A DNA stretch of 64,000 bases from Gammaproteobacteria bacterium (GTDB lineage Bacteria > Pseudomonadota > Gammaproteobacteria > Steroidobacterales > Steroidobacteraceae), in contig PKWJ01000014.1 of assembly GCA_003132025.1 (NCBI GenBank), positions 94,786 through 158,785 of the forward strand, read 5' to 3'. This document shows, one piece after another, positions 8,634-25,996 of this stretch (positions within the stretch are counted from its first letter, which is position 1; every line of letters begins with the position of its first letter). The notes below the pieces were generated by a model. That model was not told where the DNA came from, ran no database searches, and saw only the letters and a program-made list of their open reading frames with translations. A program made the position numbers and the translations under genes.

Positions 8634-8649
8634 AGCAATTCTTGTGCCG
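8634..8649 (-). promoter_or_regulatory. Sigma-54 promoter for flhA operon
   Basis: On the minus strand the site reads CGGCACAAGAATTGCT: a -24 GG and a -12 GC with exact spacing, followed by CT as in the other sigma-54 sites here. It lies in the only gap (102 bp) between flhB and flhA, so it should start the flhA-flhF-flhG-fliA-motCD transcript. The predicted start at about 8623 almost touches the flhA ATG. Confidence 0.8.
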
Positions 8650-8722
8650 CCGGCAGCGACAAATTCCCGGCGCGCAAAACGCCCCGCGAGTGCGACCTGC
8701 GTCACATAAATCGCCGCCGCGC

Positions 8723-9838: not shown

Positions 9839-9848
9839 GGCGCGGCTC

Positions 9849-10628
9849 CTAGGCGACGCCGCCGAGCGCGCGCAGGTACTGGAATGCGGAGTTCAGTAAA
9901 TCCAGGAAACCGGTCTGCATGCTCGGCAGTCCGAGCCACACCACCACCAGGCCGAACACCAGCGTCACCGGCAGTCCGACTGCGAACAGGTTCAGGCTCG
10001 GCGCGGCGCGGCTGGTAACGCCGAACGCAAGATTGATCACCAGCAGCGCTGTCATCCCGGGCAGCGCGATGCGCAGCGCGCCGAGGAACATCTGGTTGCC
10101 CCAATCGGCCAGCGTCTGCAACACCTGCGGCGAAAACGCGCTCGGCCCGATCGGCAGGCCGTGGAAACTCGCCACCAGGGTTTCTATCAGCGCCACGTGG
10201 CCATCGAGCGCGATGAAGGTGAGCGTTCCGAGTATCACGTACAGCTGTCCGAGGGCGGGACTTTCGACCCCGCGCAACGGATCGATGTTGAACGCCAGGC
10301 CCAGGCCCATGCCATTGGCGAGCAGCTGGCCGCCGAGGTTGAGTGCATCGAACATCAGCTGCAGCGCAAATCCCATCGCCACGCCAATGAGGATCTGCTG
10401 CACCGTGGTGATGACACCGTCGGCCGACAGCAGCGTCAGGCCGCTGACACTGGGAATCAGCGGCAGTGCCACCAGCGTGAGCGCACCGGCCAGCACGATG
10501 CGCACGCGCGGTGGCACATAGCTGGCCCCGAACAGCGGTGCCACCATCAGGCAGGCGCCGATGCGCAGGAACGGCCAGAAGGCGACCCCGATCCAGCCCT
10601 CGATCTGGGAGTAGGTGTAGACCGGCAT
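9849..10628 (-). CDS. fliR: Flagellar export gate protein FliR
   Basis: 259 residues, strongly hydrophobic, with about six membrane segments (for example GVAFWPFLRIGACLMVAPLF and the run around MGFALQLMFDALNLGGQLLA). The family features GLGLAFNIDPLRG and FLDLLNSAFQYL are seen. FliR joins FliP and FliQ in the core export gate of the type III apparatus in the inner membrane. It lies 15 bp downstream of fliQ and 10 bp upstream of flhB. Confidence 0.96.
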   Translation of the reverse strand: MPVYTYSQIEGWIGVAFWPFLRIGACLMVAPLFGASYVPPRVRIVLAGALTLVALPLIPSVSGLTLLSADGVITTVQQILIGVAMGFALQLMFDALNLGGQLLANGMGLGLAFNIDPLRGVESPALGQLYVILGTLTFIALDGHVALIETLVASFHGLPIGPSAFSPQVLQTLADWGNQMFLGALRIALPGMTALLVINLAFGVTSRAAPSLNLFAVGLPVTLVFGLVVVWLGLPSMQTGFLDLLNSAFQYLRALGGVA

Positions 10629-10643
10629 GGTGGCGTCGCCGGC

Positions 10644-10913
10644 TCAGCCGATCAACGACGGAATGCTCTCGATCAGCATGCGCGTGTAGCTCACCAGCTG
10701 CTTGAGCATCCACGGGCCCGCGATCACCATCGCTGTAGCCATGCCGACCAGCTTCGGAATGAACGACAGCGTCATCTCGTGGATCTGGGTCGCGGCCTGG
10801 AAGATGCCGACCAGAAGACCGATCAGCAGTGCCACCAGCAGCAGCGGCGCCGCCAGCATCATGGTCATCTCGAGCGCACGCTGCGCGATCGTCAGTACGG
10901 TTTCCGGCGTCAT
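10644..10913 (-). CDS. fliQ: Flagellar export gate protein FliQ
   Basis: 89 residues, exactly the family length, with two membrane helices: MMLAAPLLLVALLIGLLVGIF (about residues 17-37) and LVGMATAMVIAGPWMLKQLV (about 56-75). The intervening QAATQIHEMTLSFIPK is a FliQ hallmark. It contributes to the FliPQR export gate. It lies 15 bp from both fliP and fliR within one operon. Confidence 0.97.
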   Translation of the reverse strand: MTPETVLTIAQRALEMTMMLAAPLLLVALLIGLLVGIFQAATQIHEMTLSFIPKLVGMATAMVIAGPWMLKQLVSYTRMLIESIPSLIG

Positions 10914-10928
10914 GCGGCGCTCCGTTGC

Positions 10929-11753
10929 CTAGTGATAGAAGCTCGATGCCAGCGAGCCCATGACCAGCGTCCAGCCGTCCACCAGCACGAACAGCATGAG
11001 CTTGAACGGCAACGAGATCAGCACCGGCGACAGCATCATCATGCCCATGGACATGAGCACGCTCGCGACCACCAGATCGATAATGACGAACGGAATGAAC
11101 AGCAGAAAGCCGATCTGGAACGAAGTCTTCAGCTCGCTGGTGACGAAGGCAGGCGCCAGGATGGTGAGCGGAACGTCCTGCGGACTTGCAAATCCCTTAC
11201 CGCCGGACATGCGCACGAAGGCGGCGATATCGGACTCGCGCGTCTGCTCAAGCATGAAGCTCTTGAGCGGCCCGACGCCGCGCTCGAGCGCTGTGCTGGT
11301 ATCAATGCTGCCCGCCATGTACGGCGTGACTGCATCGGTGCGCACCTTGTCGATCACCGGTGACATCACGAACAGCGTCAGGAACAGCGCCAGGCCAATC
11401 AGCACCTGATTCGGCGGCGACTGCCCGGCGCCGATCGCCTGGCGCAGGATCGACAGCACGATGATGATACGGGTGAATGCGGTCATCATCAGCAGCGCCG
11501 CCGGCAGCAGCGTGATCGCCGTCATCAGTGCCAGCAGCTGAATGGTCAGCGTGTAGGTCTGGCCACCGCCGCTGTTGCGCACGGCGAACGCCGGTATGCC
11601 CGGCGTCGCGCCGGACGCCGCGGTCGCCGTGGTTGCGCCGCTCGCGGCGGCCGCCGCGTGCGCCATCACCGGCAGCAGCAACGGCAGCAGCACCAACGCC
11701 GCTGTCAGCAGTAGTGCGGTACGCCGCACTCGATGCGACCGCGTTATGTTCAT
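10929..11753 (-). CDS. fliP: Flagellar export gate protein FliP
   Basis: 274 residues. An N-terminal signal-like helix (about 10-33) is followed by an Ala/Thr-rich spacer and then the conserved core with helices including [24 protein letters not shown] and [27 protein letters not shown]; the latter region carries the FliP family signature. The motif [20 protein letters not shown] is typical. FliP assembles as a pentamer with FliQ and FliR. Its start overlaps the end of fliO by four bases (ATGA), implying coupling. Confidence 0.96.
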
Positions 11754-12253
11754 TTGCCCAGACTCTTGAGCAGCAGCGACTTGAAGCTCGGACGGCCAGA
11801 CCCGGGATCAGCGCCGGCTTCGCCGGGTTGCGGCATCGACGCCGCGTTACCTGCCGAGGCTTGCGGCTCAAGCACGTGCAGTGTGCGTATGTTGCCTGCA
11901 GCGACGCCGAGCAGCAGCTGGCGATCGCCGACGCGCACCAGCACCGCGCGCTCGCGTGTGCCGAGCGGCAACTGCGCCAAGAGCTCGAGACTGGAACTGC
12001 TGCCACCACCGCCTATCGCACGCATGCGCCGCGCCAGCCAGGCGGCCGCAAGCACCGCGGCCAGCACCACCAGCAGCGCAACGGTCACGCGCAGCAGGCC
12101 GCCGGCGGCACTGGGCACCGCGGGCTGCACCGGTACCGCGAATGGAGTTGCCGACGCTGCGTACAGCATGCGGCTCGCGCCGCCGATCAGCGCCAGCGAT
12201 GCGAGCGGCCGGCGCAAGCGTTGCGTGAAACGATTTGTGGCAATGGTGTTCAA
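11750..12253 (-). CDS. fliO: Flagellar protein FliO
   Basis: About 167 residues from the TTG at 12253. A cleavable or anchoring N-terminal segment is followed by the main membrane helix ([25 protein letters not shown]) and the conserved cytosolic stretch [20 protein letters not shown], with [13 protein letters not shown] after it. FliO stabilises FliP assembly. The frame is open to a GTG at 12391, but a strong sigma-54 promoter inside it (12303-12318) predicts a transcript start near 12292, which excludes that codon; the TTG follows GGAG by 10 bases. It is the first gene of fliO-P-Q-R-flhB, detached from fliN. Confidence 0.85.
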
Positions 12254-12302
12254 CAGCGAGCGGCTCCGTAATTTTTGCAGGATTAATTCGCCTGCAATGA
12301 GG

Positions 12303-12318
12303 AGCAACACGCATGCCA
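12303..12318 (-). promoter_or_regulatory. Sigma-54 promoter for fliOPQR-flhB
   Basis: The minus strand reads TGGCATGCGTGTTGCT, then CC: -24 GG and -12 GC at exact spacing, 6 of 7 matches to TGGCACG and a full TTGCT. The predicted transcript start is about 12292, giving a 39-base leader before the TTG start of fliO. It is what lets the fliO operon stand alone after its separation from fliLMN. Confidence 0.85.
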
Positions 12319-12376
12319 GCCGATGCGCGCTGTGGCTAAGTGGTTCTGCGGATTTGATTTGCGGCGATCGGCTCGA

Positions 12377-12392
12377 TGTGATCCAGATCACA
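12377..12392. promoter_or_regulatory. CRP/Vfr/Clp-type palindrome
   Basis: The sequence TGTGATCCAGATCACA is a perfect TGTGA-N6-TCACA inverted repeat, the core recognised by CRP-family regulators. It is centred about 92 bases upstream of the predicted fliO transcript start and about 227 bases upstream of the DUF4382 gene start, so it could serve either. The regulator gene is not in this window. Confidence 0.7.
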
Positions 12393-12611
12393 ACGGCATG
12401 CGATGCCGGATATTTGGCGCCGCGCTGCGAACGCCTGAATTATTTGCAGTGACTGTCGCCGCGGGCCGACAGATGGGGCCTAACTTTCCGGGGTCGGTGT
12501 ATACGCGTCAACCGAATCTGACGCTGACCGCTGTTCTCCCCACGGCTCGCAGCACCACCACCTTAGGTGGCAGCTCGAGAATGTTATGGAATATCGCATG
12601 GAGGACGGGTG

Positions 12612-14579
12612 ATGAGATTTACAATGCTTCGATACGCCGTGTGCGCGGTCCTGGCGGCTACGGTCGCGGCCTGTGGCGGCGGCGGCAGTAGCAGCTCCGA
12701 TTTATCGTCGAGCAGCGGTTCCAGCACCGCGACCCAGTCCGGCAGCGTGCCGCTGGTCGTGAGCGATGCCTCATCGGATGACTGGGCGCTGGTTGGCGTC
12801 AGGGTATTGAGCATTGCGCTGGTACCGCAGGGCGGCGGCGCCAATGTGACGGTGTTTACAGCAGCTTCGTCTGCGCCATACCTGAATCTCGAGCAGCTCG
12901 ATAACATCGGCGAGATCCTCGGCAATGTCTCCGTGCCCGTGGGCACCTACACCGGCGCGGTAGTCACCGTCGGCGGCAATCCCGGCGACGTGTTGCTGAC
13001 CGTGGCCGCGAACCCGGAGGTTGGCTTCGCCGGTGTGGCGGGATCGAGCATCGCCTCCGCCGACATCCAGATCCAGAATGCGAGCGGCACCGCTCCCAGT
13101 CTGACGGTACCGATCGACGTCTCCTTCAATACACCGCTGGTCGTTACCTCCAGTAGCTCGCCGAACCCGGCACTCGACCTGGAATTCGACCTGTCGCATC
13201 CGGCTTTCATCGTCGGCCATCAGCCGCCGGGTGCCGGCATCACCGAGTGGGCAGTCAATTTCGTCGGCCCGGTGCGCCAACATCCGATTGCCGACATTAC
13301 GCGGCTGGTGCTGCGTCACATGTATGGCAACGTGATGTCAACGTCGAGCGACGGCACCTCGATCACGATCACCAAGGAATATCCGCTGCTGCCGGTGGCC
13401 ACGCCGGAGACGGCGGTCGCAGGCACCCAGCAGCTGACGATCCTGGCGGACGCCACCAACGGCACGCTGTTCTACGACCTGGACGCCAAAACCGTCACCA
13501 CCATCACCAGCTTCAGCAGCCTGACCGGTCTGCCCGGCGAGTACGTGCGCGTCGCCGCGCGCTATCAGCAGAACGGCACGCTGGTGGCGACCCGCATCTG
13601 GGCCAGCACCAGCTTTGCCAACGTATGGCTGAGCCCGGAGGGCCACGTGTTGCATGCCGACACCACCAACCAGACCATCACAGTCACCAACGAATCGGGC
13701 CTCCCGGTATTGATGCAGATCACCGGCACTACGCAGTTCTATCTGCGCCAGCCGTGGTCCGCAATCGCCGATGCGACTCCGATCGGCACCGGCACCGCGT
13801 TCCTGGATGCGGGCAATCTGGTGCGCGGATTCAAGATTCACGCCAGCGTCGAAGATCCGCTGGCCGCGACTTGGGTGGCGCAGAGCATCGACATCGAGAC
13901 CGCCGACTACTCCGGCGCCATCTCGAACCCGACCACGAGCGGCTTCACCTATACGCACAACTACCTGGATGCGTCCGATGACTACGTGGCCACGCTCGAC
14001 TACATCTCTCCGAGCAGCATCAACACCATCAATGACAGTGACAGCTCGATCACTGGCTTCAAGTACTGGAACTTCGCGTTCCCGACTCTGCTGATCGACG
14101 GCAGCACGGCGATCGGCGACTTCATCATGGCCACCAACGGTACTGCAGTCAGCTTCGGAGGCACCGCGGCACCGATCGGAGTGGTCGGCCTGAGCGCCGC
14201 CAGGTGGGCTGACCCCGCCAATCCGACCGGGTGGAGCGTACCGTGGACGGTACTGGAGCCGGTGCCCGTGCCGCTGGCGCTGGTTCAGACCGGTATCGTG
14301 GGCAATGCCTTCACCATCGCAGTGGCCAATGGCAGCCAGCCGGTAACGGTGGACTTCAGCAACGCCAGCGGTTCGGCAACCCTGGTCTACGAGGTCGATC
14401 GTACCGGCAACATCGTCACCATCAACCCGGTGGATATCACGACCATGAGCGGCATGAACTACTTCAGCGCCGCTTTGACTTCCAACACTCCGGTCAAGGT
14501 CTATGGGGTCCCGCAGGCCGGCGGCACGATCATGGGCTACGTGGTGGTCTACTTCACCGGCATGGCGCCGATAAGCTGA
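12612..14579 (+). CDS. DUF4382-type lipoprotein
   Basis: 655 residues from the ATG at 12612, which has the strong ribosome site GGAGG seven bases upstream. A lipoprotein signal peptide ends at the lipobox TVAAC (Cys21), followed by a Gly/Ser-rich linker. Residues about 40-190 resemble the DUF4382 beta-sandwich domain (LVVSDASSDDWALVGVRVLS; VPVGTYTGAVVTV). The remaining 450 residues are rich in Thr, Ser, Val and Gly and look like further extracellular beta domains without a recognised catalytic motif. Likely anchored in the outer membrane; function unknown. It reads rightward, away from fliO, and ends in its own terminator. Confidence 0.8.
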   Translation: MRFTMLRYAVCAVLAATVAACGGGGSSSSDLSSSSGSSTATQSGSVPLVVSDASSDDWALVGVRVLSIALVPQGGGANVTVFTAASSAPYLNLEQLDNIGEILGNVSVPVGTYTGAVVTVGGNPGDVLLTVAANPEVGFAGVAGSSIASADIQIQNASGTAPSLTVPIDVSFNTPLVVTSSSSPNPALDLEFDLSHPAFIVGHQPPGAGITEWAVNFVGPVRQHPIADITRLVLRHMYGNVMSTSSDGTSITITKEYPLLPVATPETAVAGTQQLTILADATNGTLFYDLDAKTVTTITSFSSLTGLPGEYVRVAARYQQNGTLVATRIWASTSFANVWLSPEGHVLHADTTNQTITVTNESGLPVLMQITGTTQFYLRQPWSAIADATPIGTGTAFLDAGNLVRGFKIHASVEDPLAATWVAQSIDIETADYSGAISNPTTSGFTYTHNYLDASDDYVATLDYISPSSINTINDSDSSITGFKYWNFAFPTLLIDGSTAIGDFIMATNGTAVSFGGTAAPIGVVGLSAARWADPANPTGWSVPWTVLEPVPVPLALVQTGIVGNAFTIAVANGSQPVTVDFSNASGSATLVYEVDRTGNIVTINPVDITTMSGMNYFSAALTSNTPVKVYGVPQAGGTIMGYVVVYFTGMAPIS

Positions 14580-14622
14580 CAGTCGTCCGCGACTCCCCGC
14601 GCGCGCGACGCGCGCGATTCCG

Positions 14623-14655
14623 CCCCGACGGTCACCGACCGTTCGGGGCTTTTTT
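14623..14655 (+). terminator. Rho-independent terminator of the DUF4382 gene
   Basis: A GC-rich hairpin (CCCCGACGGTC paired with GACCGTTCGGGG, one bulged base, loop ACC) is followed directly by CTTTTTTG. It starts 44 bases after the stop codon of the lipoprotein gene. Confidence 0.88.
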
Positions 14656-14698
14656 GTACCGCTAGACGGCATTTCCGAGAAAACTACCCAGACATCGA

Positions 14699-14824
14699 AC
14701 CTTAGCCTCGTAGACAGGTGGGCAAGGCGCCCGCCGACGAATCAGAAGGTCCCTGCTTTTCGGTATCGATGCCGCGCAAAGCTAAGGGCCCAGACGCACG
14801 CTGGCGTGCTGGGCCCAAGTTTTT
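14699..14824 (+). ncRNA. Possible structured RNA ending in a terminator hairpin
   Basis: The 125-base stretch between two hairpin terminators has no plausible gene but several helices: CCTTAGC (14700-14706) can pair with GCTAAGG (14781-14787); GGTGGGC (14717-14723) with GCCCGCC (14729-14735); and a terminator hairpin closes it. This layout fits a small RNA or a riboswitch-like element. No promoter was identified and no Rfam family was recognised; the fragment GCGCAAAGC recalls c-di-GMP riboswitches but the rest does not fit. Confidence 0.3.
14786..14824 (+). terminator. Rho-independent terminator, rightward
   Basis: A perfect 8-bp stem (GGGCCCAG at 14786-14793 with CTGGGCCC at 14809-14816), extended by an inner ACGC/GCGT helix, is followed by AAGTTTTT. 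The T tract is on the plus strand, so it does not serve the leftward UrcA gene. The preceding rightward gene already has its own terminator, which is why a separate short transcript is suspected. Confidence 0.75.
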
Positions 14825-14852
14825 GAGGGTGCACGAGGGGGGGCGTGCTGCG

Positions 14853-15233
14853 CTAGCGAGTCCCTGCCGCCGCCACTACCACTGGGGCTGACACGCCGTA
14901 TTGGGAGGCGAAGACAGCGGACAGGGCTGGCTCATCAACCTTGTTCACCGCATCGGCGATGACTTTCTGCAGGCAGGCGTTCTTGTATCGCCTGTACGCC
15001 TCAGTGTTGGTGTACATGCGCCAGCAGACATCCTCGGCCGCGCCGTGTATCCGACCATAGAGGGCCACAGCGCCGCGTGAAGTCGAGAGATCGAGATCGG
15101 CGAATTTGACAACGACCTGCGGGGGTGTCGCGTCGTCCTCAGCGCTGGAGACGGTGGCGAAACTGAAGGCCAGGGCGCTGAGGATCGCTCCGGCGGCCAG
15201 GGTTCGAAATGACTTGGAAGTGATGGTGATCAT
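14853..15233 (-). CDS. UrcA family secreted protein
   Basis: 126 residues with a clear signal peptide (about 1-31, ending near SSA). The mature part shows the UrcA family pattern: a VVKFADLDLSTSRGAVALYGRI stretch, then two conserved cysteines in EDVCWRM and YKNACLQKVI that could form a disulfide. UrcA proteins are small periplasmic proteins of unknown role, common in Sphingomonadales, Caulobacterales and some Steroidobacter relatives. The ribosome site AAGGAG lies eight bases before the ATG. It diverges from the Ser/Thr kinase gene. Confidence 0.85.
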   Translation of the reverse strand: MITITSKSFRTLAAGAILSALAFSFATVSSAEDDATPPQVVVKFADLDLSTSRGAVALYGRIHGAAEDVCWRMYTNTEAYRRYKNACLQKVIADAVNKVDEPALSAVFASQYGVSAPVVVAAAGTR

Positions 15234-15437
15234 AGAAAATCTCCTTGTGGTAGCCGATTAAGTCACTGGGGTTGCCGGATCGCTCGTCGCGAGGCGCTCT
15301 CTTGGCCCTCTGCCGGGATTTCCCGGCGTGCCCAAATCGCTGCCTCACCCATACAGACGCCGTTCAGGTGCCAAACCCGACATCCGACTTGCCGATTGCG
15401 TGGCAAAGGCTTCTCTGGGGCGTTAAGTTGTCCGCCG

Positions 15438-18161
15438 ATGGCACTATCGATTCCTCAGATGGCAAGGATGAGCCAGCTGCTGCAGGCCGCGCTGGGTCTG
15501 GATGAGCCGGCTCGCCGCGCCTGGCTGGAGCGTCTTCCCCTCGAGCATCGGGATCTGGCACCGGCACTCCGGCAAGCGCTGCTGCCCGAGGAGGGGCAGG
15601 CCGAGCACCTGCAAGCGCTGCTGAGCCTGCCGAAGCTCAGTGGCGCGGATCAGGGAAACACGCCAGCCGCGAGCGGCCTGCAGTCCGGCGCACGCGTGGG
15701 GCCGTACGAGCTGATTCGATTGCTGGGTGCCGGGGGCATGGCGGAAGTGTGGCTGGCGCGGCGCGCCGATGGGGCTTTCAAGCGCGAGGTAGCAGTGAAG
15801 CTACCGCGGCTCGCGCACGCGCAGGCGGGTCTTGAGGCGCGTTTTGCGCGCGAGCGCGACATCCTGGCCAGTCTCGAGCATCCCCATATCGCGCGCCTCT
15901 ACGATGCCGGTGTGGATCCGCAGGCGTTGCCCTACCTGGCGATGGAGTATGTGCAGGGTGAGTCGCTGACACACTGGTGTGACGCCCATCGGCTCAGGCT
16001 TCGCGAGCGCTTGGGGCTTTTCCTGCAGGTGCTCGAGGCCGTGCAATACGCCCATGCCAAGCAGGTCATTCACCGGGATCTCAAGCCATCGAACATTCTG
16101 GTGACCGACTCGGGGCAGGTGCGGCTGCTGGATTTTGGCGTCGCTCGGCTGCTGGAGGCTGAAGATACGGATCAGCCGGCGCTCACCAGTGTCTACGGCC
16201 GTGCGCTGACGCCCGACTATGCCAGTCCCGAACTTTTGCGCGGCGACCCGATCGATAAGCGCAGCGATCTCTACTCGCTGGGCGTACTGCTCTACGAGCT
16301 GCTGAGTGGTACCCGACCCTATCGACTCAAGAGCGCAGCCTCGATCGGGGCGCTCGATCGGGCCATCGCCACGCTTGAGGTGAAGAAGCCGAGCCTGCAG
16401 GTCGAGCCGGCGGCAGCCACTGCCCGCGACGGCACCGCCGAACAGTGGGCGCGGCAACTGCGCGGCGACCTCGATGCCATTGTGATCAAGGCACTGGCGT
16501 TGGATCCCGCGCAGCGCTATCCCAGTGCCGCCGCGATGGCGGAGGATCTGCAGCGCTATCTGGACGGCAGACCCATCAGAGCGCGACCGGCACGCATCGC
16601 TTACCGTGCGGGCAAGTTCATATCGCGAAATCGAGTGCTGCTCGCCGTCAGCGCTGCGGCTGCGCTCGCGATTCTGACCGCGGTGGGTTATACGCGCTAC
16701 CGCGAGAACCTTGCGCAGGTCACGGTCAGTGCGAAGATTCTTGCCGTGCCCACTGCAGCAAGCCCCGCTGGTTCTGCTGCTGCTTTTGCACCGCCCGCGC
16801 ACTCGATCGCGGTGCTGCCGTTCGTGAACCTCAGCGGAGACAAGGAGCAGGAGTACTTCTCCGACGGGCTCACCGAAGAATTGCTTAATTCCCTTGCCGA
16901 GATCGACGGATTACAGGTTGCAGCGCGCACGTCATCGTTCTCATTCAAAGAGCATCCGGACATTGCCACCGTGGCGCACAAACTCAATGTCGGCGCAGTG
17001 CTCGAAGGAAGTGTACGGCGCTCGGCGAACACCATCCGCATCACCGTGCAGTTGATCAACGCCGTCACGGGCTTTCACCTGTGGTCCAAGACCTATGACC
17101 GGAACTTGGGCGATGTGCTCAAACTTCAGACCGAGATTGCCACCGCGGTGGCCAGTGCCCTGAAAGTCACCCTCCTCGGGGATGTCGCGGCCAAAGTCGA
17201 GCTCGGCGGTACGCACAATCCGGCCGCATTCGATGCGTATCTGCGTGGGGCAAAGGCGGACAGCTCGATACGCGACACCAAAGACCTCCCAGCCGCCATT
17301 GCCGCGTACACGGAAGCGATTCGCCTCGATCCGCACTATGCGCTCCCATTCGCAGCCCGATCGATCGCCCTTTCCTATGTCGCCGGGGATGCGGCGACCC
17401 CAAGGGCGATGCGTGAAAGTATTGACAAGGCGCAGGCGGATGCGCACCAGGCGCTCGCGCTCGCGCGGGATCTGGCCCAGGCGCACCTCGCATTTGCAGT
17501 CGTTTCGGAGTATGCAATGAACCTCACGCAGGCAAGTGAGGCATACGATCGGGCCCTCGCGCTTGCGCCGGGCAATGCCCAGGTTTTGCGACTAAGCGGC
17601 AGATCCGCAGCCCTCATGGGGCACTTCGATGCGGGCGTTGCGGCCGCGCGCCGCGCAGTCGTGCTCGACCCGCTCGCTCCCGAAAGTCATGCGCGGCTCG
17701 GCCAGGCGCTGTATGTGGCCCGCCGCTATGAGGAGGCGGTTGCGGCATTCGCCGAAGTCATCAGTGTTGAGCCCGATTTCAAGTTGCCCTACGCGGAGCG
17801 CGGGCTCGCCTACTACGGGCTCGGGGATCTGGAGAGAGCGCGCGCTTCATGCGAGACGACGCCGGACTACTGGGAGAGTCAACAGTGCCTAGCGGTGACC
17901 TACGACAAGCTCGGCCGGCACGCGGATGCGGAAGCCGTACTTTCGAAGCTGAAGGTAGCACTGGGCGATACCGCGGCGTATCAATACGCCACGATCTATG
18001 CGCAGTGGGGCAATCGGGCGAAGGCGCTCGAGTGGCTGGACACCGCTATGAGGCTGCGTGACCCGGGTCTATTGAATCTGAAGACCGATCCACTCATGGA
18101 CCCCTTGCGCAAAGAGCCGCGCTTCCAGGCGATCGAGCGCGAGTTGAAGTTTCCGTACTAA
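15438..18161 (+). CDS. Ser/Thr protein kinase with TolB-like and TPR regions
   Basis: 907 residues from the ATG at 15438; an upstream GTG at 15396 is less likely. After an N-terminal helical part, a Hanks-type kinase domain spans about residues 89-370: glycine loop LLGAGGMAEVWLA, ATP lysine in VAVKLPR, catalytic HRDLKPSN (about 212-219) and DFGVARLL. One membrane helix (about 399-417) follows. The outside part begins with a TolB-like domain (IAVLPFVNLSGDKEQEYFSDGL; about 456-575) and ends with TPR-like repeats. All key kinase residues are present, so it should be active. Targets are unknown; no phosphatase is adjacent. Confidence 0.9.
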   Translation: MALSIPQMARMSQLLQAALGLDEPARRAWLERLPLEHRDLAPALRQALLPEEGQAEHLQALLSLPKLSGADQGNTPAASGLQSGARVGPYELIRLLGAGGMAEVWLARRADGAFKREVAVKLPRLAHAQAGLEARFARERDILASLEHPHIARLYDAGVDPQALPYLAMEYVQGESLTHWCDAHRLRLRERLGLFLQVLEAVQYAHAKQVIHRDLKPSNILVTDSGQVRLLDFGVARLLEAEDTDQPALTSVYGRALTPDYASPELLRGDPIDKRSDLYSLGVLLYELLSGTRPYRLKSAASIGALDRAIATLEVKKPSLQVEPAAATARDGTAEQWARQLRGDLDAIVIKALALDPAQRYPSAAAMAEDLQRYLDGRPIRARPARIAYRAGKFISRNRVLLAVSAAAALAILTAVGYTRYRENLAQVTVSAKILAVPTAASPAGSAAAFAPPAHSIAVLPFVNLSGDKEQEYFSDGLTEELLNSLAEIDGLQVAARTSSFSFKEHPDIATVAHKLNVGAVLEGSVRRSANTIRITVQLINAVTGFHLWSKTYDRNLGDVLKLQTEIATAVASALKVTLLGDVAAKVELGGTHNPAAFDAYLRGAKADSSIRDTKDLPAAIAAYTEAIRLDPHYALPFAARSIALSYVAGDAATPRAMRESIDKAQADAHQALALARDLAQAHLAFAVVSEYAMNLTQASEAYDRALALAPGNAQVLRLSGRSAALMGHFDAGVAAARRAVVLDPLAPESHARLGQALYVARRYEEAVAAFAEVISVEPDFKLPYAERGLAYYGLGDLERARASCETTPDYWESQQCLAVTYDKLGRHADAEAVLSKLKVALGDTAAYQYATIYAQWGNRAKALEWLDTAMRLRDPGLLNLKTDPLMDPLRKEPRFQAIERELKFPY

Positions 18162-18299
18162 CTGTCTCAGCGCGCTTCCCGAAACCGGACAGTTGCGACC
18201 GGCTGCAAGGGTCAACTTGAGCCATTGGCTGGTCGCAAAACTCACCAGCAGGAAAGTCCGTTTTCCGGAAAATTCGTTCCTTCACTTACAATACAGGCC

Positions 18300-18479
18300 A
18301 TGCAGGCTGAAATGGGCAGACAGGTCGCTGTAGCGCTTTACGTGGTGGCAATGGTAGCCGTCATAGTTGGTTTGGATGTCGCATTCTTCAGAAACCGATT
18401 CTGGGAACGGCTGATAGCGAACATTGGCGTTGTCTTGGTGTTCGCGGCTTTCTATTTGAGATTCCTAAGGCGTCCATGA
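18300..18479 (+). CDS. Small membrane protein, two helices
   Basis: A 59-residue reading starting MQAEMGRQ with two hydrophobic segments (VALYVVAMVAVIVGLDVAFF and IGVVLVFAAFYLRFL) separated by RNRFWERLIAN. The regular membrane pattern and positively charged ends suggest a real small inner-membrane protein. An earlier in-frame start at 18225 would add 25 polar residues and is less likely. No function is recognised. A TACAAT hexamer near 18288 could be a -10 element but would lie very close to the start. Confidence 0.55.
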   Translation: MQAEMGRQVAVALYVVAMVAVIVGLDVAFFRNRFWERLIANIGVVLVFAAFYLRFLRRP

Positions 18480-18519
18480 ACAAGGCGGTGGTTGGGTAGT
18501 CGTCTGGGAAATGGTACTG

Positions 18520-19848
18520 CTAGTCGAATGATGGCAGCGGTGCACCGGCGACGGATCTCTCGGGCGCGGTCTCCGGCATCAGTGATGCGGCCGCCAGCCC
18601 CAGCAGCGTTGCGCCCATCCAGTACCACGCCGGGGCCAGCGGATTGCCGGTGCGCGAAATGAGCCAGCTGATGACGAACTGCGTAGAGCCGCCGAACACC
18701 GAAATCGCGAACGCGTAGGTAGTAGCGACCACGCCGGCGCGGATTTTTTTCGGCAATGCCTCCGTCAATGCGACGATCACCGGCGGCGTGCCCAGCGCGA
18801 ACAGCGCAGCGATCAGGCCCATCATGCTGTAGACGATCCATGCCGATGGATAGCGATTGACGATCCAGAACACTGGAAACACGGAGACCAGCGTCAGCGT
18901 GTAGCCGATGATGATGATCCTGCGGCGGCCGTAGCGGTCGGACAGGGCGCCGCCAAGGGGGTCGACGATGATGGCGCAGATCGATGTGACGACCACCACA
19001 CCGAATGCTATGCCGGGCGGCAGGTGCAGCGTATTGAGCGCATAGGTGGTCAGGTATTCCAGAACGTAGGAGCCGATGGTGCCGCACGAGAGCAGCACCA
19101 GGCCGAACGCGATGATTGGCAGATAGGGTCCGATGCGTGCCGAAGGTCCGAGCGCGCCCAGCGTTGCGTCGGGCGCGAGCGCGGCATCGTCCGCGGCGTG
19201 CAGGGTCTCGGGCAGGCGATCGCGCAGGAACATCCCGAACGGCACGATGATCACGCCGAGCAGAAACGCAATGCGCCAGCCCCAGTCCTGCAGATGCTGC
19301 GGGCTCAATGTGCTCGAGAGCGTTACCCCGACCAGCGCCGCCAGCAGGTTGGCCGCGTCCTGCGTCAGGTATTGCATGGAACCATACAGTCCGCGCCGAT
19401 GGGGAGGCGCGGCCTCGACCATGTAGGCGGTGGTCGGACCTACTTCCCCGCCGAGCGCAAAGCCCTGGATGAGCCGGAACACCAGCGCCAGGATTGGAGC
19501 GGCGATTCCGATGCGCGCATACGAGGGCGTGAGCGCCAGACCCAGCATGCCGACACCCATCAACACGAACGAGATCAGCATCGCGGGCTTGCGCCCGATG
19601 CGGTCGCCGAGCGTTCCAAGCACAATGCCGCCGATCGGACGGGTGACGAATCCGATCCCGAACGTCGCCAGCGACAGCAGCAGGCTCAACGCGCCGTCGC
19701 TGGAAGGGAAAAACGCGCGGCCGATGTAGACGGCAAACAGCGCGTAGCTCAGGAAGTCGTAGAACTCCAGGCCATTACCGACGAACACCGCAACCACATA
19801 GGACGCCGGTATGGCTCTGTGCGGCGCAGCTGTGCTCGCTTGATTCAC
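18520..19848 (-). CDS. MFS transporter, metabolite:H+ symporter (MHS/ProP-like) type
   Basis: 442 residues with about 12 predicted membrane helices. The loop between helices 2 and 3 has GDRIGRKPAML and the symmetric loop between 8 and 9 has SDRYGRRRIII, both signatures of the major facilitator superfamily; LIQGFALGGEVGPTTAYMVE is typical of the MHS subgroup that carries organic acids, osmolytes or sugars with protons. The substrate cannot be told from sequence. It diverges from the DUF763 gene and lies in the block that separates fliN from fliO. Confidence 0.87.
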   Translation of the reverse strand: MNQASTAAPHRAIPASYVVAVFVGNGLEFYDFLSYALFAVYIGRAFFPSSDGALSLLLSLATFGIGFVTRPIGGIVLGTLGDRIGRKPAMLISFVLMGVGMLGLALTPSYARIGIAAPILALVFRLIQGFALGGEVGPTTAYMVEAAPPHRRGLYGSMQYLTQDAANLLAALVGVTLSSTLSPQHLQDWGWRIAFLLGVIIVPFGMFLRDRLPETLHAADDAALAPDATLGALGPSARIGPYLPIIAFGLVLLSCGTIGSYVLEYLTTYALNTLHLPPGIAFGVVVVTSICAIIVDPLGGALSDRYGRRRIIIIGYTLTLVSVFPVFWIVNRYPSAWIVYSMMGLIAALFALGTPPVIVALTEALPKKIRAGVVATTYAFAISVFGGSTQFVISWLISRTGNPLAPAWYWMGATLLGLAAASLMPETAPERSVAGAPLPSFD

Positions 19849-19953
19849 GGCAGGTCATCCATGGCTCGACCAACGAGCCGCTCTGCAGCAGCCATATTAG
19901 CCCGACCGAAGCGCGAGGTGCGCGCGGGCGCGACGACACGGCACAATGCGGCG

Positions 19954-21168
19954 GTGACCAGACGCACCGGAAGCGCCGATCTGCCGCTGCACCACGGGCA
20001 TGTGCCGCCGTGGCTTGCCACGCGCATGGCGGCGCTGGGCCGGGTGATGGCCGAGGCGATCGTGCATCACTACGGGCGCGACGAACTGCTGCGCCGCCTG
20101 GCCCATCCGTTCTGGTTTCAGTCGTTCGGCGCTGTCATGGGCATGGACTGGCACTCCTCGGGCATGACCACCAGCGTGGTGGGCGCGTTGCAACGCGGCC
20201 TGGCGCCCATTCGTCATGAGCTTGGTATCTACGTCTGCGGCGGCAAGGGCCTGCGCGGCCGCGAGACGCCGGCGCAGCTCGCCCGGCTCGGCGATGAGAC
20301 CGGACTCGACGCGCAGGCGCTGACGCAAGCCAGCCGCCTGGTCGCCAAGGTCGACGGCGCCGCGGTACAGGACGGCTACGACCTGTATCTGCACGCGTTC
20401 ATCGCCGCGGCGGATGGCCGCTGGTGCGCGGTGCAGCAGGGTATGAACCCGCGGCGGCGCGAAGCGCGACGATATCACTGGCTGTCGGAGGGTCTGGACA
20501 GTTTCCTCGATTCCCCGCATGCCGCCATTGACGGCCGCAGTCACGGCGTCATTGTCAATCTGGCGGATGCGCGTGCGGCAGACAGCCGTAGCGCCAGCCT
20601 GGCGCTGGTAGTCGGCGGCCCGGATCGCACCGTGGCCACGCTGCGGCGGCTGCACGCAGCGAGCTCCCCGACACTGCACCTGTTTCCACTGCCCGATCCG
20701 CAGCCGGCGCCCGAACAGTCCTTGCCCCACCTGCAGATGCCGGCGCATCACGACATCCGGGCATCGGACGTAGTGCTCGGGCGCCTGCACGCGGCGCTGC
20801 GCGCCGCGGCCGAGCGCGGACCGAAGGATTTCGGGGAATTGCTGCTGACGCCGGGGGTCGGCGCGCGCACCGTGGCGGCACTGGCGCTGGTGGCCGAAGT
20901 GATCCACGGCGCCCCATCGCGCTTCTCCGACCCGGCGCGATTTGCGATGGCACATGGCGGCAAGGATGGCCACCCGTTCCCGGTGCCACTCGAGGTCTAC
21001 GATCAGACGCTAAGCGTGCTCAGCCAGGCGATGGCACGCGCCAGGCTCGGAAACGACGACCGGCTCTGGGCGCTGGCGCGCCTCGATGCGCAGGCGCGCT
21101 GGCTGGAACGGGCTGCTAGCCGAGCGCGGCCTGCAGCGTTTCCATTTCCGTCTGCGACTCCAGCATGA
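19954..21168 (+). CDS. DUF763 protein
   Basis: 404 residues from the GTG at 19954, giving the family N-terminus TRRTGSADLPLHHGHVPPWL; an in-frame ATG at 19861 would add 31 unconserved residues. DUF763 hallmarks are clear: FWFQSFGAVMGMDWHSSGMT, ASRLVAKVDGAAVQDGYDLY, QQGMN. Near residue 300 the stretch LLLTPGVGARTVAALALVAE resembles a helix-hairpin-helix, which hints at nucleic-acid contact, but the function of DUF763 is unknown. Its 3' end overlaps the oppositely oriented HDOD gene by 53 bp, so the last 17 codons are antisense to that gene. Confidence 0.85.
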   Translation: MTRRTGSADLPLHHGHVPPWLATRMAALGRVMAEAIVHHYGRDELLRRLAHPFWFQSFGAVMGMDWHSSGMTTSVVGALQRGLAPIRHELGIYVCGGKGLRGRETPAQLARLGDETGLDAQALTQASRLVAKVDGAAVQDGYDLYLHAFIAAADGRWCAVQQGMNPRRREARRYHWLSEGLDSFLDSPHAAIDGRSHGVIVNLADARAADSRSASLALVVGGPDRTVATLRRLHAASSPTLHLFPLPDPQPAPEQSLPHLQMPAHHDIRASDVVLGRLHAALRAAAERGPKDFGELLLTPGVGARTVAALALVAEVIHGAPSRFSDPARFAMAHGGKDGHPFPVPLEVYDQTLSVLSQAMARARLGNDDRLWALARLDAQARWLERAASRARPAAFPFPSATPA

Positions 21169-21991
21169 TGCGCACGATCGCCGAGTCGGTAAGTCCCATG
21201 GCCGCCGCCGCCGGCATCTGCGCCAGCGCCGCATCGTCGGCAGCATTATTCGCCATCTGCGTCGCCAGGCTCACGGCGACGATCAACAGGTCCTGTAGAT
21301 CGGCCGGAGCTGCGTGCGAGCGCTCGACATCGTTCTGGCCGCCCACCGCCACCGCGATGTCTTCTGGCAGCTTCCAGTTCTCGATCAACGCCTGGCCGAT
21401 ACCAGGGTGCCAGTCACGCAACACGGCGTCGTCGACGTGCACCTGGACTGCGTCCTTGGGCGTGCGCGCAATGATGTAAACCTTGCCGATGTTGTGCAGC
21501 AGGCCAGCCAGCAGCGCCTCATCGGGACGCATCAGTTGCGACTCCTTCGCCATCGCATGCGCCAGCGCAGCCACACGTATGCCCTCCTGCCAGAAGCGCT
21601 CAAGATCGGTCCGGATATGGGCCAGGTCGGCGGCGTGGCGCACCTGCGCGGTCGCGTAGGCCAGCGCCGCGGCGCGGATGCTGTCGTGACCAATGCGCGT
21701 GACGGCGACCTTCAGGTCGGTGACCGGCGAGCCGCCGCGGTGCAGTAGCGTCGAATTGGCCATGGTCAGGATGCGTGCGGCCAGGCCGGCATCGGAACTC
21801 ACCACGCGCGCAATGCGCTCGCTGGTGATGCTGTCATCGCTCAGCACGTGCTGCACGCGCGCCACGGCATCTGGAAACGACGGCAGGTCGATGCGCCCCG
21901 CCGACAGCTCCCTGGCCAGGTCGCTCAGAAACTGGAACGGCGACCCGGTAGTTTCGGCCTCGGCAGGCTGCGATCTGCTCGTCGCTGACAC
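21116..21991 (-). CDS. HDOD domain signalling protein
   Basis: 291 residues with a single HDOD domain over about residues 25-230 (LPSFPDAVARVQHVLSDD; ISSDAG-like VVSSDAGLAARILTMANS; ALLAGLLHNIGKVYII). The HD-type metal residues are not intact (HN instead of HD), as usual for HDOD proteins, so a non-catalytic signalling or scaffolding role is likely. It starts at GTG with GGAG nine bases upstream. A sigma-28 promoter at 22026-22052 places it in the late flagellar regulon, and it directly follows fliN. HDOD proteins influence motility and biofilm in several gammaproteobacteria. Confidence 0.88.
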   Translation of the reverse strand: MSATSRSQPAEAETTGSPFQFLSDLARELSAGRIDLPSFPDAVARVQHVLSDDSITSERIARVVSSDAGLAARILTMANSTLLHRGGSPVTDLKVAVTRIGHDSIRAAALAYATAQVRHAADLAHIRTDLERFWQEGIRVAALAHAMAKESQLMRPDEALLAGLLHNIGKVYIIARTPKDAVQVHVDDAVLRDWHPGIGQALIENWKLPEDIAVAVGGQNDVERSHAAPADLQDLLIVAVSLATQMANNAADDAALAQMPAAAAMGLTDSAIVRIMLESQTEMETLQAALG

Positions 21992-22025
21992 GTTGCGCTA
22001 CTCCGAATTGCTACTACCGCCTGTA

Positions 22026-22052
22026 ATATCGGCCCGCGGTGGCCAATCTTGA
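22026..22052 (-). promoter_or_regulatory. Sigma-28 (FliA) promoter for the HDOD gene
   Basis: The minus strand reads TCAAGATT, 11 bases, then GCCGATAT, matching TCAAGTTT-N11-GCCGATAA at 14 of 16 positions with exact spacing. The predicted start is about 22019, giving a leader of about 28 bases. It lies in the 69-bp gap between fliN and the HDOD gene. Confidence 0.8.
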
Positions 22053-22060
22053 GGCGAACG

Positions 22061-22411
22061 CTACTTCAATTGACGAATTCGTTCCGCCGGGCTGATGACG
22101 TCGGTCAGGCGGATGCCGAACTTGTCGTTGACCACGACCACTTCGCCGTGGGCTATCAGGGTGCCGTTGACGTAGACGTCGAGTGGTTCGCCGGTCGCCC
22201 GCTCCAGCTCGACCACCGAGCCCTGGTTGAGCTGCAGCAGATTGCGGATGCTGACCCGGCTGCGTCCCACCTCCATCGACAGTGTGACTGGGATATCCAG
22301 CACCACATCGAGATTCAGTTCACGGTTTGTGCCGGCCTCCGGGGTATCGGGCTTCAGATTGCCCAGTGGCGCCGGCTGCGGCTCCGCCGCGTTGGCTGTA
22401 GCGTTACTCAT
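22061..22411 (-). CDS. fliN: Flagellar switch protein FliN
   Basis: 116 residues. After a variable N-terminal 35 residues, the SpoA domain carries the family features LDIPVTLSMEVGRSRVSIRN, QGSVVELERATGEPLDVYVN and NDKFGIRLTDVIS. FliN forms the bottom of the C-ring with FliM and takes part in switching and in binding the FliH-FliI export complex. It overlaps fliM by four bases. In related genomes fliO follows at once; here it does not. Confidence 0.96.
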   Translation of the reverse strand: MSNATANAAEPQPAPLGNLKPDTPEAGTNRELNLDVVLDIPVTLSMEVGRSRVSIRNLLQLNQGSVVELERATGEPLDVYVNGTLIAHGEVVVVNDKFGIRLTDVISPAERIRQLK

Positions 22412-23424
22412 AGTTTTCCACCTATCACGACATTACTTAACACCGGCGGTTTGTGGCGCGAGATGCGTTGTGTGACCTTGACCGCCTGCTGCCCGCGCGA
22501 TGCGCCATAGCTGCCGCGCAGCACCGGTACGCCCTCCGCGTACAGCGTCACGTGGCCGTCGAAGTCACAGGGAATGATGTCTCCGGGCTTGAGATCCACC
22601 AGCCGGCCCACTGACAGAGAGCTCTTGCCCAGCACCGGCACGATTTCGACCTCGGCCTCCTCGATCTCCTCGCGCAGTGCATGGGTCCAGCTGTCGTTGC
22701 GCTCCATCCGATCGCTCTGCACGCCGGAATCCAGCTGGTCGCGGATCGGCTCGATCATCGCGTACGGCATGGTCACGTGCAGCTCGCCGCCGCCGCCCTC
22801 GAGTTCGACTTTGAACGAGGTTACGACCACGACCTCGGACGGACTGACGATATTGGCGAAGTGCGGATTGATCTCCGAGTTCAGGTACTCGAGGTTGATG
22901 TTGGTAACGATGTTCCAGGCCTCGGTCAGATCGGCGAACGCCTGACGCAGCACCATCTGGATGATGCGACCCTCGGTCATGGTGAATTCGCGCCCTTCGA
23001 TCTTGGCGTAGCGGCCACTGCCGCCGAAGAAATTATCGACCATGGCGAATACCAGGGTCGCGTCGAGCACCAGCAACGCCGTGCCGCGCAGCGGATTGAG
23101 CCGGATCAGATTCAGGCTGGAGGGCACATGCAGGTTCTGGGTGTACTCGCTGAATTTCTCCACCCGCACCGGCGCCACGCTGATCTCAGCCGTGCGGTGC
23201 AGCATGTTGTACAGTCCGATGCGAAACTGGCGCGCGAAGCGATCGTTGATCATCTCGAGCGTCGGCATGCGGCCGCGCACCAGCCGCACCTGGGTGGCGA
23301 TATCGAACACCCGTACCTCACCGGGCGTCTCGGGCGGCGGCGCAGTCGGCACCGCGCCGTCGTCTACGCCCCTGAGCAGGGCATCGATTTCTTCCTGATT
23401 CAGGATCTCGGCGCCCATGGTCAT
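22408..23424 (-). CDS. fliM: Flagellar switch protein FliM
   Basis: 338 residues. The N-terminal CheY-binding peptide is visible as ILNQEEIDALL. The middle CheC-like domain has FARQFRIGLYNMLHRTAEIS and FFGGSGRYAKIEGREFT, and the C-terminal SpoA domain has LKPGDIIPCDFDGHVTLYAEGVPVLRG. FliM links phosphorylated CheY to motor reversal. Four-base overlaps with fliL and fliN show a tight operon. No chemotaxis genes are in the window, so CheY must be encoded elsewhere. Confidence 0.97.
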   Translation of the reverse strand: MTMGAEILNQEEIDALLRGVDDGAVPTAPPPETPGEVRVFDIATQVRLVRGRMPTLEMINDRFARQFRIGLYNMLHRTAEISVAPVRVEKFSEYTQNLHVPSSLNLIRLNPLRGTALLVLDATLVFAMVDNFFGGSGRYAKIEGREFTMTEGRIIQMVLRQAFADLTEAWNIVTNINLEYLNSEINPHFANIVSPSEVVVVTSFKVELEGGGGELHVTMPYAMIEPIRDQLDSGVQSDRMERNDSWTHALREEIEEAEVEIVPVLGKSSLSVGRLVDLKPGDIIPCDFDGHVTLYAEGVPVLRGSYGASRGQQAVKVTQRISRHKPPVLSNVVIGGKL

Positions 23425-23936
23425 TGGATCACGAAACTGGTGAAGTAGACGGCCTCAAGCCCCTGGCCATTGGCGCCTTCGCTGTCGAGCACCTTGCGGA
23501 TGATGGCGAGCGTCGCGGCGCGCAGCTTCTCCTTGCCCTCCACCGTCATCAGCGTGGCATTGTCCTGGCCGGAATACAGCATCACCAGGTCGTTGCGCAC
23601 CGCGGGTTCGAAATTCTTCAGGCTTTCCACCACCGTCATGTCGCGCGACATCGCCTCGACCGTGACCTGCAGGTAGCGGGCGCTGCCTTCGCCGCCGAAA
23701 TTGACCACGAATGCCGGATCGAACTTGTAGTAGATCGGGGCCGCGTGCGACGCCGCGGGTTTGGCGGCGGCCGCGCCAGCCTCGGGCTGGGCAGCCGGCT
23801 TCAAGGCAAACCAGGCGCCGGCGCCCCCGCCGATCACCACCACGGCGATGACGATCCACAGCAGCTTGCCCTTTTTCTTGGGCTTGATCGGCTGCACGTT
23901 GGCGGCAGGTTCCTTCTTGGCGGGTTCGGTAGCCAT
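23421..23936 (-). CDS. fliL: Flagellar basal body protein FliL
   Basis: 171 residues: a Lys/Pro-rich cytoplasmic start, one membrane helix (LLWIVIAVVVIGGGAGAWFAL, about 25-45), and a periplasmic stomatin-like domain with YYKFDPAFVVNF, RYLQVTVEAMSRD and the end VYFTSFVIQ. FliL rings surround the stator and support torque under load. It is the first gene of fliLMN and has its own sigma-54 promoter 56-71 bases upstream. Confidence 0.93.
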   Translation of the reverse strand: MATEPAKKEPAANVQPIKPKKKGKLLWIVIAVVVIGGGAGAWFALKPAAQPEAGAAAAKPAASHAAPIYYKFDPAFVVNFGGEGSARYLQVTVEAMSRDMTVVESLKNFEPAVRNDLVMLYSGQDNATLMTVEGKEKLRAATLAIIRKVLDSEGANGQGLEAVYFTSFVIQ

Positions 23937-23991
23937 GTTCGATGGTGCTCGCTGCGTTGCTGTCGGTTGCGGGTCAGGTGCTGTACATCAG

Positions 23992-24007
23992 AGCAAGCGT
24001 TGTGCCA
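23992..24007 (-). promoter_or_regulatory. Sigma-54 promoter for fliLMN
   Basis: The minus strand reads TGGCACAACGCTTGCT, then C, with -24 GG and -12 GC at correct spacing and 6 of 7 matches to TGGCACG. The predicted start near 23981 leaves a 45-base leader to the fliL ATG. It sits in the 121-bp gap after fliK, so fliLMN can be expressed apart from the fliE-fliK transcript. Confidence 0.85.
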
Positions 24008-24057
24008 GCGCGACTTTGCTGATAACGACGGAAAACTGTCGTTGCCGTGGCGCACAT

Positions 24058-25988: not shown

Positions 25989-25996
25989 TTAGATCC

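What the first reader, a model, noticed from the sequence alone, without database searches (positions are those of the whole stretch)
12253..22061. About 9.8 kb of non-flagellar genes between fliN and fliO
In most FleQ-type gammaproteobacteria fliL-M-N-O-P-Q-R-flhB are contiguous. Here fliLMN ends at 22061 and fliO starts at 12253, both on the minus strand. Between them lie an HDOD gene, DUF763, MFS, small membrane, kinase, UrcA and DUF4382 genes in mixed directions. fliO has a strong sigma-54 promoter of its own, so the split operon still seems to be served. The block could be an insertion or a rearrangement scar.
Basis: partly seen in the sequence, partly recalled or inferred. Interest (0 to 1): 0.6.

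Follow-up and report, generated by a model that had tools for sequence, protein, structure and literature searches.

The report
Flagellar operon opened at a promoter
In a group of related bacteria the genes for building the flagellum are interrupted at one fixed spot that carries its own predicted on-switch, and unrelated genes have repeatedly settled there; it is a modest but informative example of how a conserved gene block can be broken apart without being destroyed.

Summary
In detail: 9.8 kb with seven non-flagellar genes lies between fliN and fliO. It is neither recent nor unique. In clade A of the genus, HDOD follows fliN in 6 of 6 species and DUF4382 is on the fliO side in 5 of 5 readable ones; G011 has only this pair. 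What lies between differs by species: in the window DUF763 is shared at this site only with G008, while MFS, small ORF, kinase and UrcA were seen at the site in no relative. Sister clade B (6 of 6) keeps fliN-fliO together, yet carries a good sigma-54 site in that junction, which 12 outgroup genomes lack. In G007 an integron follows fliN. Best reading: the junction gained a promoter, became a tolerant seam, was opened once or twice, and collected cargo. HDOD has a conserved sigma-28 (FliA)-type site, and three of its four nearest relatives follow cheB in chemotaxis clusters, so it is probably a motility gene. A CRP-type palindrome is conserved before fliO in clade A. All promoters are predictions; whether promoter or split came first is unsettled (two scenarios cost equally many changes on the tree).

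The parts
23992..24007 (-). sigma-54 promoter-like site upstream of fliL
   Evidence: TGGCACAACGCTTGCT, 1 mismatch
22408..23424 (-). fliM
   Evidence: Pfam FliM, FliMN_C
22061..22411 (-). fliN, last gene before the break
   Evidence: Pfam FliMN_C 88 bits
22027..22052 (-). sigma-28 (FliA)-type promoter site of the HDOD gene
   Evidence: 0 mismatches; 6 window hits at up to 1 mismatch against 0.27 expected; 0 mismatches in G008, G011, G009, 1 in G005, absent in G010
21116..21991 (-). HDOD signalling protein, fixed neighbour of fliN in clade A
   Evidence: Pfam HDOD 129 bits; after fliN in 6 of 6 clade A genomes
19972..21168 (+). DUF763 gene, layer shared at this site with G008 only
   Evidence: Pfam DUF763 404 bits; found in 6 of 60 genomes, at this site in G000 and G008
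18520..19848 (-). MFS transporter, probably moved here in the window lineage
   Evidence: Pfam Sugar_tr, MFS_1; closest G008 gene (82%) on another contig beside an M20 peptidase whose closest match in this genome is on C1
18225..18479 (+). 84-aa small ORF, no family, atypical codon use
   Evidence: no hit; codon z -11.4
15396..18161 (+). Ser/Thr kinase-TPR; relative of an ECF-kinase pair, here without the ECF gene
   Evidence: Pfam Pkinase 162 bits; 75.8% DNA identity to the G000:C18 copy from 15436 on
15323..15430 (+). upstream DNA that at C18 lies before the ECF sigma gene, here next to the kinase
   Evidence: 74% identity over 109 nt; sequences
14853..15233 (-). UrcA-family gene
   Evidence: NCBIfam TIGR04433 61 bits, cut-off 25; codon z -4.2
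12612..14579 (+). DUF4382 gene, fliO-side neighbour in clade A
   Evidence: Pfam DUF4382 27.8 bits, cut-off 25; orthologues at the site in G008, G011, G005, G009
12377..12392 (.). CRP-type palindrome TGTGATCCAGATCACA
   Evidence: only exact hit in the window; 74-75 nt before the sigma-54 site in 5 of 5 clade A genomes
12303..12318 (-). sigma-54 promoter-like site of fliO
   Evidence: 1 mismatch; conserved in clade A, and in the junction of unsplit clade B
11750..12253 (-). fliO, first gene after the break
   Evidence: Pfam FliO 73 bits
8723..11753 (-). fliP, fliQ, fliR, flhB following fliO
   Evidence: ORFs, named by sequence and order; order kept in relatives

Best explanation
The fliN-fliO junction is a promoter-equipped seam. 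In this genus the junction acquired a sigma-54 promoter, so fliOPQR-flhB no longer depended on read-through from fliL. The operon was then opened there on the stem of clade A by a motility-regulated HDOD gene and a convergent DUF4382 gene, and in a separate lineage (G007) by an integron. In clade A the pair became fixed, and other chromosomal genes later landed between their convergent 3' ends, and in one genome just before the fliO control region, where they break no flagellar transcription unit. In the window: fliLMN from the sigma-54 site at 24007, HDOD from a sigma-28 site (late class), fliOPQR-flhB from the sigma-54 site at 12318, possibly tuned by a CRP-type regulator. Shown: gene order, distribution over the tree, conservation of the three sequence elements, codon-use mosaic. 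Inferred: that the sites work, that the promoter came before the break, that HDOD tunes motility.
For: Clade A is one group in a ParE tree (99/96, 5 rows) and in a nine-protein flagellar tree (100, 6 rows). HDOD after fliN: 6 of 6 clade A. fliN-fliO gaps, estimated from alignment ends, 9810, 9971, 3297, 5157 nt in the 4 genomes with both on one contig. DUF4382 on the fliO side in 5 of 5 readable. Sigma-54 site in the junction of unsplit clade B: 6 of 6, 0-1 mismatch; in none of 12 outgroup genomes between fliN stop and fliO at up to 2 mismatches. No other junction examined in the genus is opened by more than 600 nt, apart from two rows that I read as search artefacts. G007: integron integrase 461 bits, two strong attC-like hairpins. 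Sigma-28 site before HDOD. HDOD groups with four genus g4 copies (100/99), three of which follow cheB. Younger layer: MFS, kinase, codon use.
Against: On the tree (A,(G007,B)) a split on the genus stem that was closed again in clade B costs two changes, the same as two independent splits, so promoter-first is not proved. G007's fliN and fliO lie on different contigs; the integron between them is inferred. G010 ends after HDOD, and its fliN-linked HDOD lacks the sigma-28 site. G009 is in two contigs that I join by inference within DUF4382, and its cargo lies on the other side of DUF4382. The sigma-28 pattern was written after I had seen the site, from a recalled consensus. The fourth g4 HDOD copy (G285) is not in a che operon; it stands before an MCP gene. 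No expression data exist.
Confidence: 0.7

Rival explanations
1. The split came first, on the genus stem; the fliO promoter arose as a rescue, and clade B later lost the inserted DNA and closed the junction, keeping the promoter as a relic.
For: Equal number of changes on the tree; both split lineages and clade B carry the promoter.
Against: No gene common to the inserts of clade A and G007 was found. Clade B has a tight junction of 68-74 nt in 6 of 6, so a precise deletion is needed.
Confidence: 0.25
2. A recent horizontally acquired island in the window's species alone.
For: UrcA, kinase and small ORF have atypical codon use; the lowest-GC 1-kb window lies in the block.
Against: HDOD and DUF4382 are clade-wide with native codon use; no integrase, tRNA or near-identical flanking repeats in the window; the kinase's closest relative in the search is in the same genome.
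Confidence: 0.03
3. The genes between fliN and fliO form a functional flagellar accessory cluster kept together by selection.
For: HDOD has a FliA-type site and che-linked relatives; DUF4382 is retained at the site in 5 of 5 readable clade A genomes.
Against: The middle genes differ between species and are absent from the site in G011 and G009. DUF4382 relatives of 56-59% occur in three other genera, with no flagellar genes seen around them.
Confidence: 0.1
4. Assembly artefact or binning chimera.
For: The clade A records with titles are metagenome bins.
Against: The same bracket is found in separately assembled public records.
Confidence: 0.01

Closest known systems
fliLMNOPQR-flhB block of FleQ/FlrA-type polar flagellates (recalled)
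   Same: Gene set and order apart from the break; 68 of 80 records fetched by FliM keep fliN and fliP within 1.2 kb (7 of the other 12 are cut by the record end)
   Different: Here the block is two units, and fliO has its own sigma-54 site, which 12 outgroup genomes lack in that junction
Division of operons with rewiring of promoters in Epsilonproteobacteria (PMC3847290, passages read)
   Same: Conserved gene runs divided into separate transcription units by gain of promoters
   Different: There it is described genome-wide, in the passages seen for sigma-70 promoters; here it is one junction of one flagellar block, with an unsplit sister clade that already carries the promoter
HDOD motility regulators SadB, GsmR, PSPTO_4229 (PMC6543031, PMC11004494, PMC11813219; passages read)
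   Same: HDOD domain; PSPTO_4229 is also a short HDOD protein (273 aa) that affects swimming
   Different: SadB has an extra YbaK-like domain; the window protein sits after fliN with a FliA-type site; its function is untested and I did not compare the sequences
Chromosomal integrons, e.g. beside ilvD in Xanthomonas (PMC3826837, passages read)
   Same: Integron integrase plus attC-like sites in G007
   Different: Lies just after fliN, apparently inside a flagellar block

Membership tests
Sigma-54-dependent flagellar transcription unit (fliO) | -24/-12 element upstream of the first gene | tested here: met
   TGGCATG-N4-TTGCT in 5 of 5 assembled clade A genomes, plus G007
Sigma-54-dependent flagellar transcription unit (fliO) | Transcription depends on RpoN and an enhancer-binding activator | not testable with these tools
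   Two Sigma54_activat genes lie in the cluster; no expression data
FliA (sigma-28) regulon (HDOD) | Sigma-28 promoter upstream | tested here: met
   Exact in the window; 5 of 6 fliN-linked copies at up to 1 mismatch, G010 fails
HDOD family | HDOD domain over the gathering score | tested here: met
   128.7 bits against 22.9
Genomic island | Integrase, tRNA or flanking direct repeats | tested here: not met
   None seen in the window block
Genomic island | Deviating composition | tested here: inconclusive
   3 of 7 genes deviate in codon use, 4 do not
Integron (G007) | IntI integrase | tested here: met
   TIGR02249, 461 bits against 265
Integron (G007) | attC sites between cassettes | tested here: met
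   Two strong hairpins with R boxes, L115 13173-13236 and 15090-15149, by my own scan; the Rfam scan gave no attC family
Integron (G007) | attI site | not tested
   -
CRP/Vfr-regulated promoter (fliO) | TGTGA-N6-TCACA palindrome and a CRP orthologue | tested here: met
   Palindrome in 5 of 5 (last base G in G005); the G005 protein matches solved CRP at about 1e-76; a like Crp-type HTH hit in 10 of 10 genomes, whole proteins read for G002, G005 and G010 only
CRP/Vfr-regulated promoter (fliO) | Binding and effect on fliO | not testable with these tools
   The site may instead serve the divergent neighbour

The most novel reading that the evidence does not exclude
A promoter evolved inside an intact flagellar operon first, and made that one junction a tolerant seam; it was then opened independently at least twice (a sigma-28-driven HDOD gene with DUF4382; an integron). 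In clade A this uncoupled the export-gate genes from the C-ring genes and put the former under an extra CRP-type input. The clade B / clade A pair would be a before-and-after case of operon break-up.
Probability: 0.4. Interest if true: 0.65.

Novelty: new variant of a known kind. Interest (0 to 1): 0.48.

Why it matters
How conserved operons break without loss of function is an old question: does a new promoter precede the break, or rescue it? This genus offers unsplit relatives with the promoter, split relatives with the promoter, and outgroups without it, all at one junction, so the order of events can be tested with more genomes and simple reporter fusions. It also points to an untested HDOD motility gene and a possible cAMP-type input to the flagellar export gate.

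Tried and rejected
Foreign island by GC: no clear contrast, though one 1-kb window of the block is the lowest. Rfam on window 8000-27000: two sub-threshold hits, one on a terminator-like stretch after DUF4382. Rfam on two G007 loci: one sub-threshold hit, no attC family. rpoB as a species marker failed in 7 of 25 genomes, and the gyrB search also returned parE and genes with a large insert, so ParE was used. A first ParE tree had mistranslated rows and was redone. A first sigma-54 scan had an indexing error and found nothing; corrected. AlphaFold2 model of DUF4382: mean pLDDT 40.9, so not searched. The first HDOD tree had long rows; it was rebuilt without four of them and with L035 added. The junction between fliN and the clade B promoter folds in 6 of 6 but in differing forms; I make no claim on it. 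In one search two flagged junctions are search artefacts by my reading (G009 fliJ-fliL: fliK missed; G005 fliI-fliK: weak fliI hit).
Full report
WHAT IS THERE. The window is G000:C42:94786-158785 of a 4.2 Mb genome in 61 contigs. The family is therefore very probably Steroidobacteraceae. The minus-strand flagellar cluster reads fliF-G-H-I-J-K-L-M-N, then 9,807 bp, then fliO-P-Q-R-flhB-flhA-flhF-flhG-fliA-motA-motB. The block holds HDOD (-), DUF763 (+), MFS (-), an 84-aa ORF (+), Ser/Thr kinase-TPR (+), UrcA (-) and DUF4382 (+).

HOW OLD. fliM was found in 42 of 60 genomes and fliP in 41 of 60, the window's own included. The genus has 15 genomes here; 13 have at least part of the main flagellar cluster (G014 has no hit; G006 has an isolated fliM and a second, divergent set). 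ParE (20 rows) and nine concatenated flagellar proteins (22 rows) both give clade A = G000, G008, G011, G005, G009, G010 (G011 is missing from the ParE tree) and clade B = G001, G002, G003, G004, G012, G013. G007 is nearest to B (93). In clade A, HDOD follows fliN in 6 of 6. DUF4382 is on the fliO side in 5 of 5; G010's contig ends after HDOD. Where fliN and fliO share a contig, the gap estimated from alignment ends is 9810 (G000), 9971 (G008), 3297 (G011) and 5157 nt (G005). In G011 the insert is only HDOD and DUF4382, tail to tail. In the 6 clade B genomes and the 12 outgroup genomes examined, fliN and fliO-fliP are adjacent (290-601 nt from fliN to fliP). Of 80 records fetched by FliM, 68 are contiguous, 7 are cut by the record end, and 5 are not contiguous within the record: four clade A records and L035.

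THE MIDDLE IS A YOUNGER LAYER. Between HDOD and DUF4382: G000 has DUF763, MFS, small ORF, kinase, UrcA; G008 has DUF763, GST, POT transporter, desaturase, DUF1993, a beta-propeller-like gene; G005 has one PMT_2 gene; G011 has none; G009 has none there, but four annotated genes or fragments (carbonic anhydrase, two histidine-kinase-like, one TonB-plug fragment) between DUF4382 and the fliO control region. DUF763 occurs in 6 of 60 genomes, at this site only in G000 and G008. The closest MFS in G008 (82%) is on C4, 45 bp from an M20 peptidase; the closest match of that peptidase in G000 is on C1, while the MFS matches C42; the 59% homologues of G009 and G005 lie on contigs other than those of the flagellar genes. 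So the MFS gene was probably moved into the seam in this lineage. The kinase is closest to a second copy in the same genome (C18, 73% aa). There an ECF sigma gene stands between the shared upstream stretch and the kinase; in the window that gene is missing and the 109-nt upstream stretch lies next to the kinase. In G008:C4 a UrcA gene and a partial ECF gene lie about 3.4 kb from the MFS gene, which suggests, but does not show, that UrcA, kinase and MFS came from one segment in changed order. Codon use against 27 other window genes (z): HDOD -0.5, DUF4382 -0.6, DUF763 -0.9, MFS -1.1, but kinase -3.6, UrcA -4.2, small ORF -11.4 (fliK in the reference set reaches -2.6).

THE PROMOTER SEAM. A sigma-54 element TGGCATG-N4-TTGCT ends 49 nt before the TTG start of fliO in the window and stands before fliO in G008, G011, G009 and G005 and, as TGGCATGCGCATTGCT, in G007. 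In the window 6 sites have up to 1 mismatch against 0.55 in shuffles. The six unsplit clade B genomes have the element in the short fliN-fliO junction with 0, 1, 0, 1, 1, 1 mismatches (G001, G002, G003, G004, G012, G013). The 12 outgroup genomes have no match at up to 2 mismatches between the fliN stop and fliO; each has a match (1 to 3 mismatches; the 1 is G029) 106 nt before the fliN stop, inside fliN, at the same place in all 12 and so probably a coding effect (my arithmetic). The promoter is thus at least as old as the genus and occurs without the split. Whether it preceded the split is open: two independent splits cost 2 changes, and a genus-stem split with closure in B would also cost 2.

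SECOND OPENING. In G007 fliN is followed by a 47-nt inverted repeat, an integron integrase (TIGR02249, 461 bits), genes with low GC at third positions, and two strong attC-like hairpins. The contig ends there. The fliO contig ends in small ORFs, one of them DUF4926. That the integron bridges the two is inference. No inserted gene common to clade A and G007 was found.

HDOD IS PROBABLY A MOTILITY GENE. A sigma-28 scan of the window (TMAAG-N14-GCCGATA, up to 1 mismatch; pattern from a recalled consensus, written after I had seen the site) gives 6 hits against 0.27 expected. One is exact before HDOD. Four others precede fliS, the flagellin, flgK and an ORF that I read as flgM from position and sequence (the flgM name is my own reading); the sixth lies in the 5' part of an ORF with a flagellar rod domain. 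The HDOD site is exact in G008, G011 and G009, has 1 mismatch in G005, and is absent in G010, whose second HDOD copy on C275 has one with 1 mismatch. Up to 1 mismatch occurs in 0.075% of shuffled and 1.0% of real 300-nt windows. Of 31 HDOD places scanned, G285, G001_C31, G002_C25 and G003_C16 also have exact sites; most of the others have none or 2 mismatches. In the HDOD tree the fliN-linked group joins four copies of genus g4 (100/99, four long rows left out). In G017 and G081 cheA, MCP, cheW, cheR, cheD and cheB precede HDOD; in G237 cheD and cheB do (contig end beyond); in G285 HDOD instead stands before an MCP gene. In the unrelated record L035, fliN is followed by STAS, cheA, MCP, cheW, cheR, cheD and HDOD, and no fliP was found in the 9.6 kb after fliN; its HDOD falls elsewhere in the tree on a long branch. 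Published HDOD proteins affect swimming: SadB, GsmR, PSPTO_4229 (passages in PMC6543031, PMC11004494, PMC11813219). The function of this one is inferred.

EXTRA CONTROL OF fliO. Upstream of the sigma-54 site clade A (5 genomes) shares TGTGA-N6-TCAC(A/G) at 74 nt (75 in G005), ACTTAG at 23 nt, and CGCCAAA at 102 nt (113 in G005). In the window the palindrome is the only exact match, among 6 at up to 1 mismatch against 1.2 expected. It keeps its distance in G009, where another gene, not DUF4382, is the divergent neighbour, so it seems to go with fliO. The genus encodes a CRP-type protein: the G005 protein matches solved CRP at about 1e-76 and Vfr at 1e-72, and a like HTH hit occurs in 10 of 10 genomes, the window's included (whole proteins were read for G002, G005 and G010 only). 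A role at fliO, up or down, is a guess.

LITERATURE. Eight searches of the held library, of which only the first 5 to 15 papers each were listed, showed by title and abstract start no paper on this split, on a sigma-54 promoter between fliN and fliO, or on an integron inside a flagellar operon. I read passages of seven papers. PMC12403147 notes absence of FliO in some Steroidobacterales; here FliO is present.

VERDICT. The arrangement is an old, clade-wide opening at a junction with its own promoter, with a younger variable filling. The parts are all of known kinds; the informative point is the unsplit sister clade that already carries the promoter.

Noticed in passing
L108, L110, L112, L119, L121, L124, L126 (G001, G002, G003, G012, G013, G034, G029): fliM is missing from between fliL and fliN in 7 of 25 rows; in G002, G003, G012 and G013 fliM lies on another contig; near it Pfam finds a methylmalonyl-CoA-mutase-type gene and an SDR gene (L111) and a thiolase (L118).
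   Followed up: partly
L267 3414-7547 (G000:C25); also G008:C22, G013:C228: GyrB with a large in-frame insert; in G000 Pfam finds Intein_splicing and LAGLIDADG_3 domains.
   Followed up: partly
L035 11020-18812: A chemotaxis gene run ending in HDOD directly after fliN in an unrelated, lower-GC bacterium.
   Followed up: partly
L115 10519-10690 (G007): 47-nt inverted repeat, 87% complementary, just after fliN and before the integron integrase.
   Followed up: no
window 21116-21168: HDOD and DUF763 overlap tail to tail by 53 bp; in G008 the called ORFs do not overlap.
   Followed up: no
window 32159-32174: CRP-like palindrome with 1 mismatch close to the sigma-54 site before the enhancer-binding regulator gene 31043-32098; about 1.2 such hits are expected by chance in the window.
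   Followed up: no
G000:C35: rpoB matches fall in three pieces near a contig edge; frameshift or assembly problem possible.
   Followed up: no
L251 7681-8589 (G010:C275): A second copy of the fliN-type HDOD gene (62%) with no flagellar gene seen around it, with a sigma-28-like site.
   Followed up: partly
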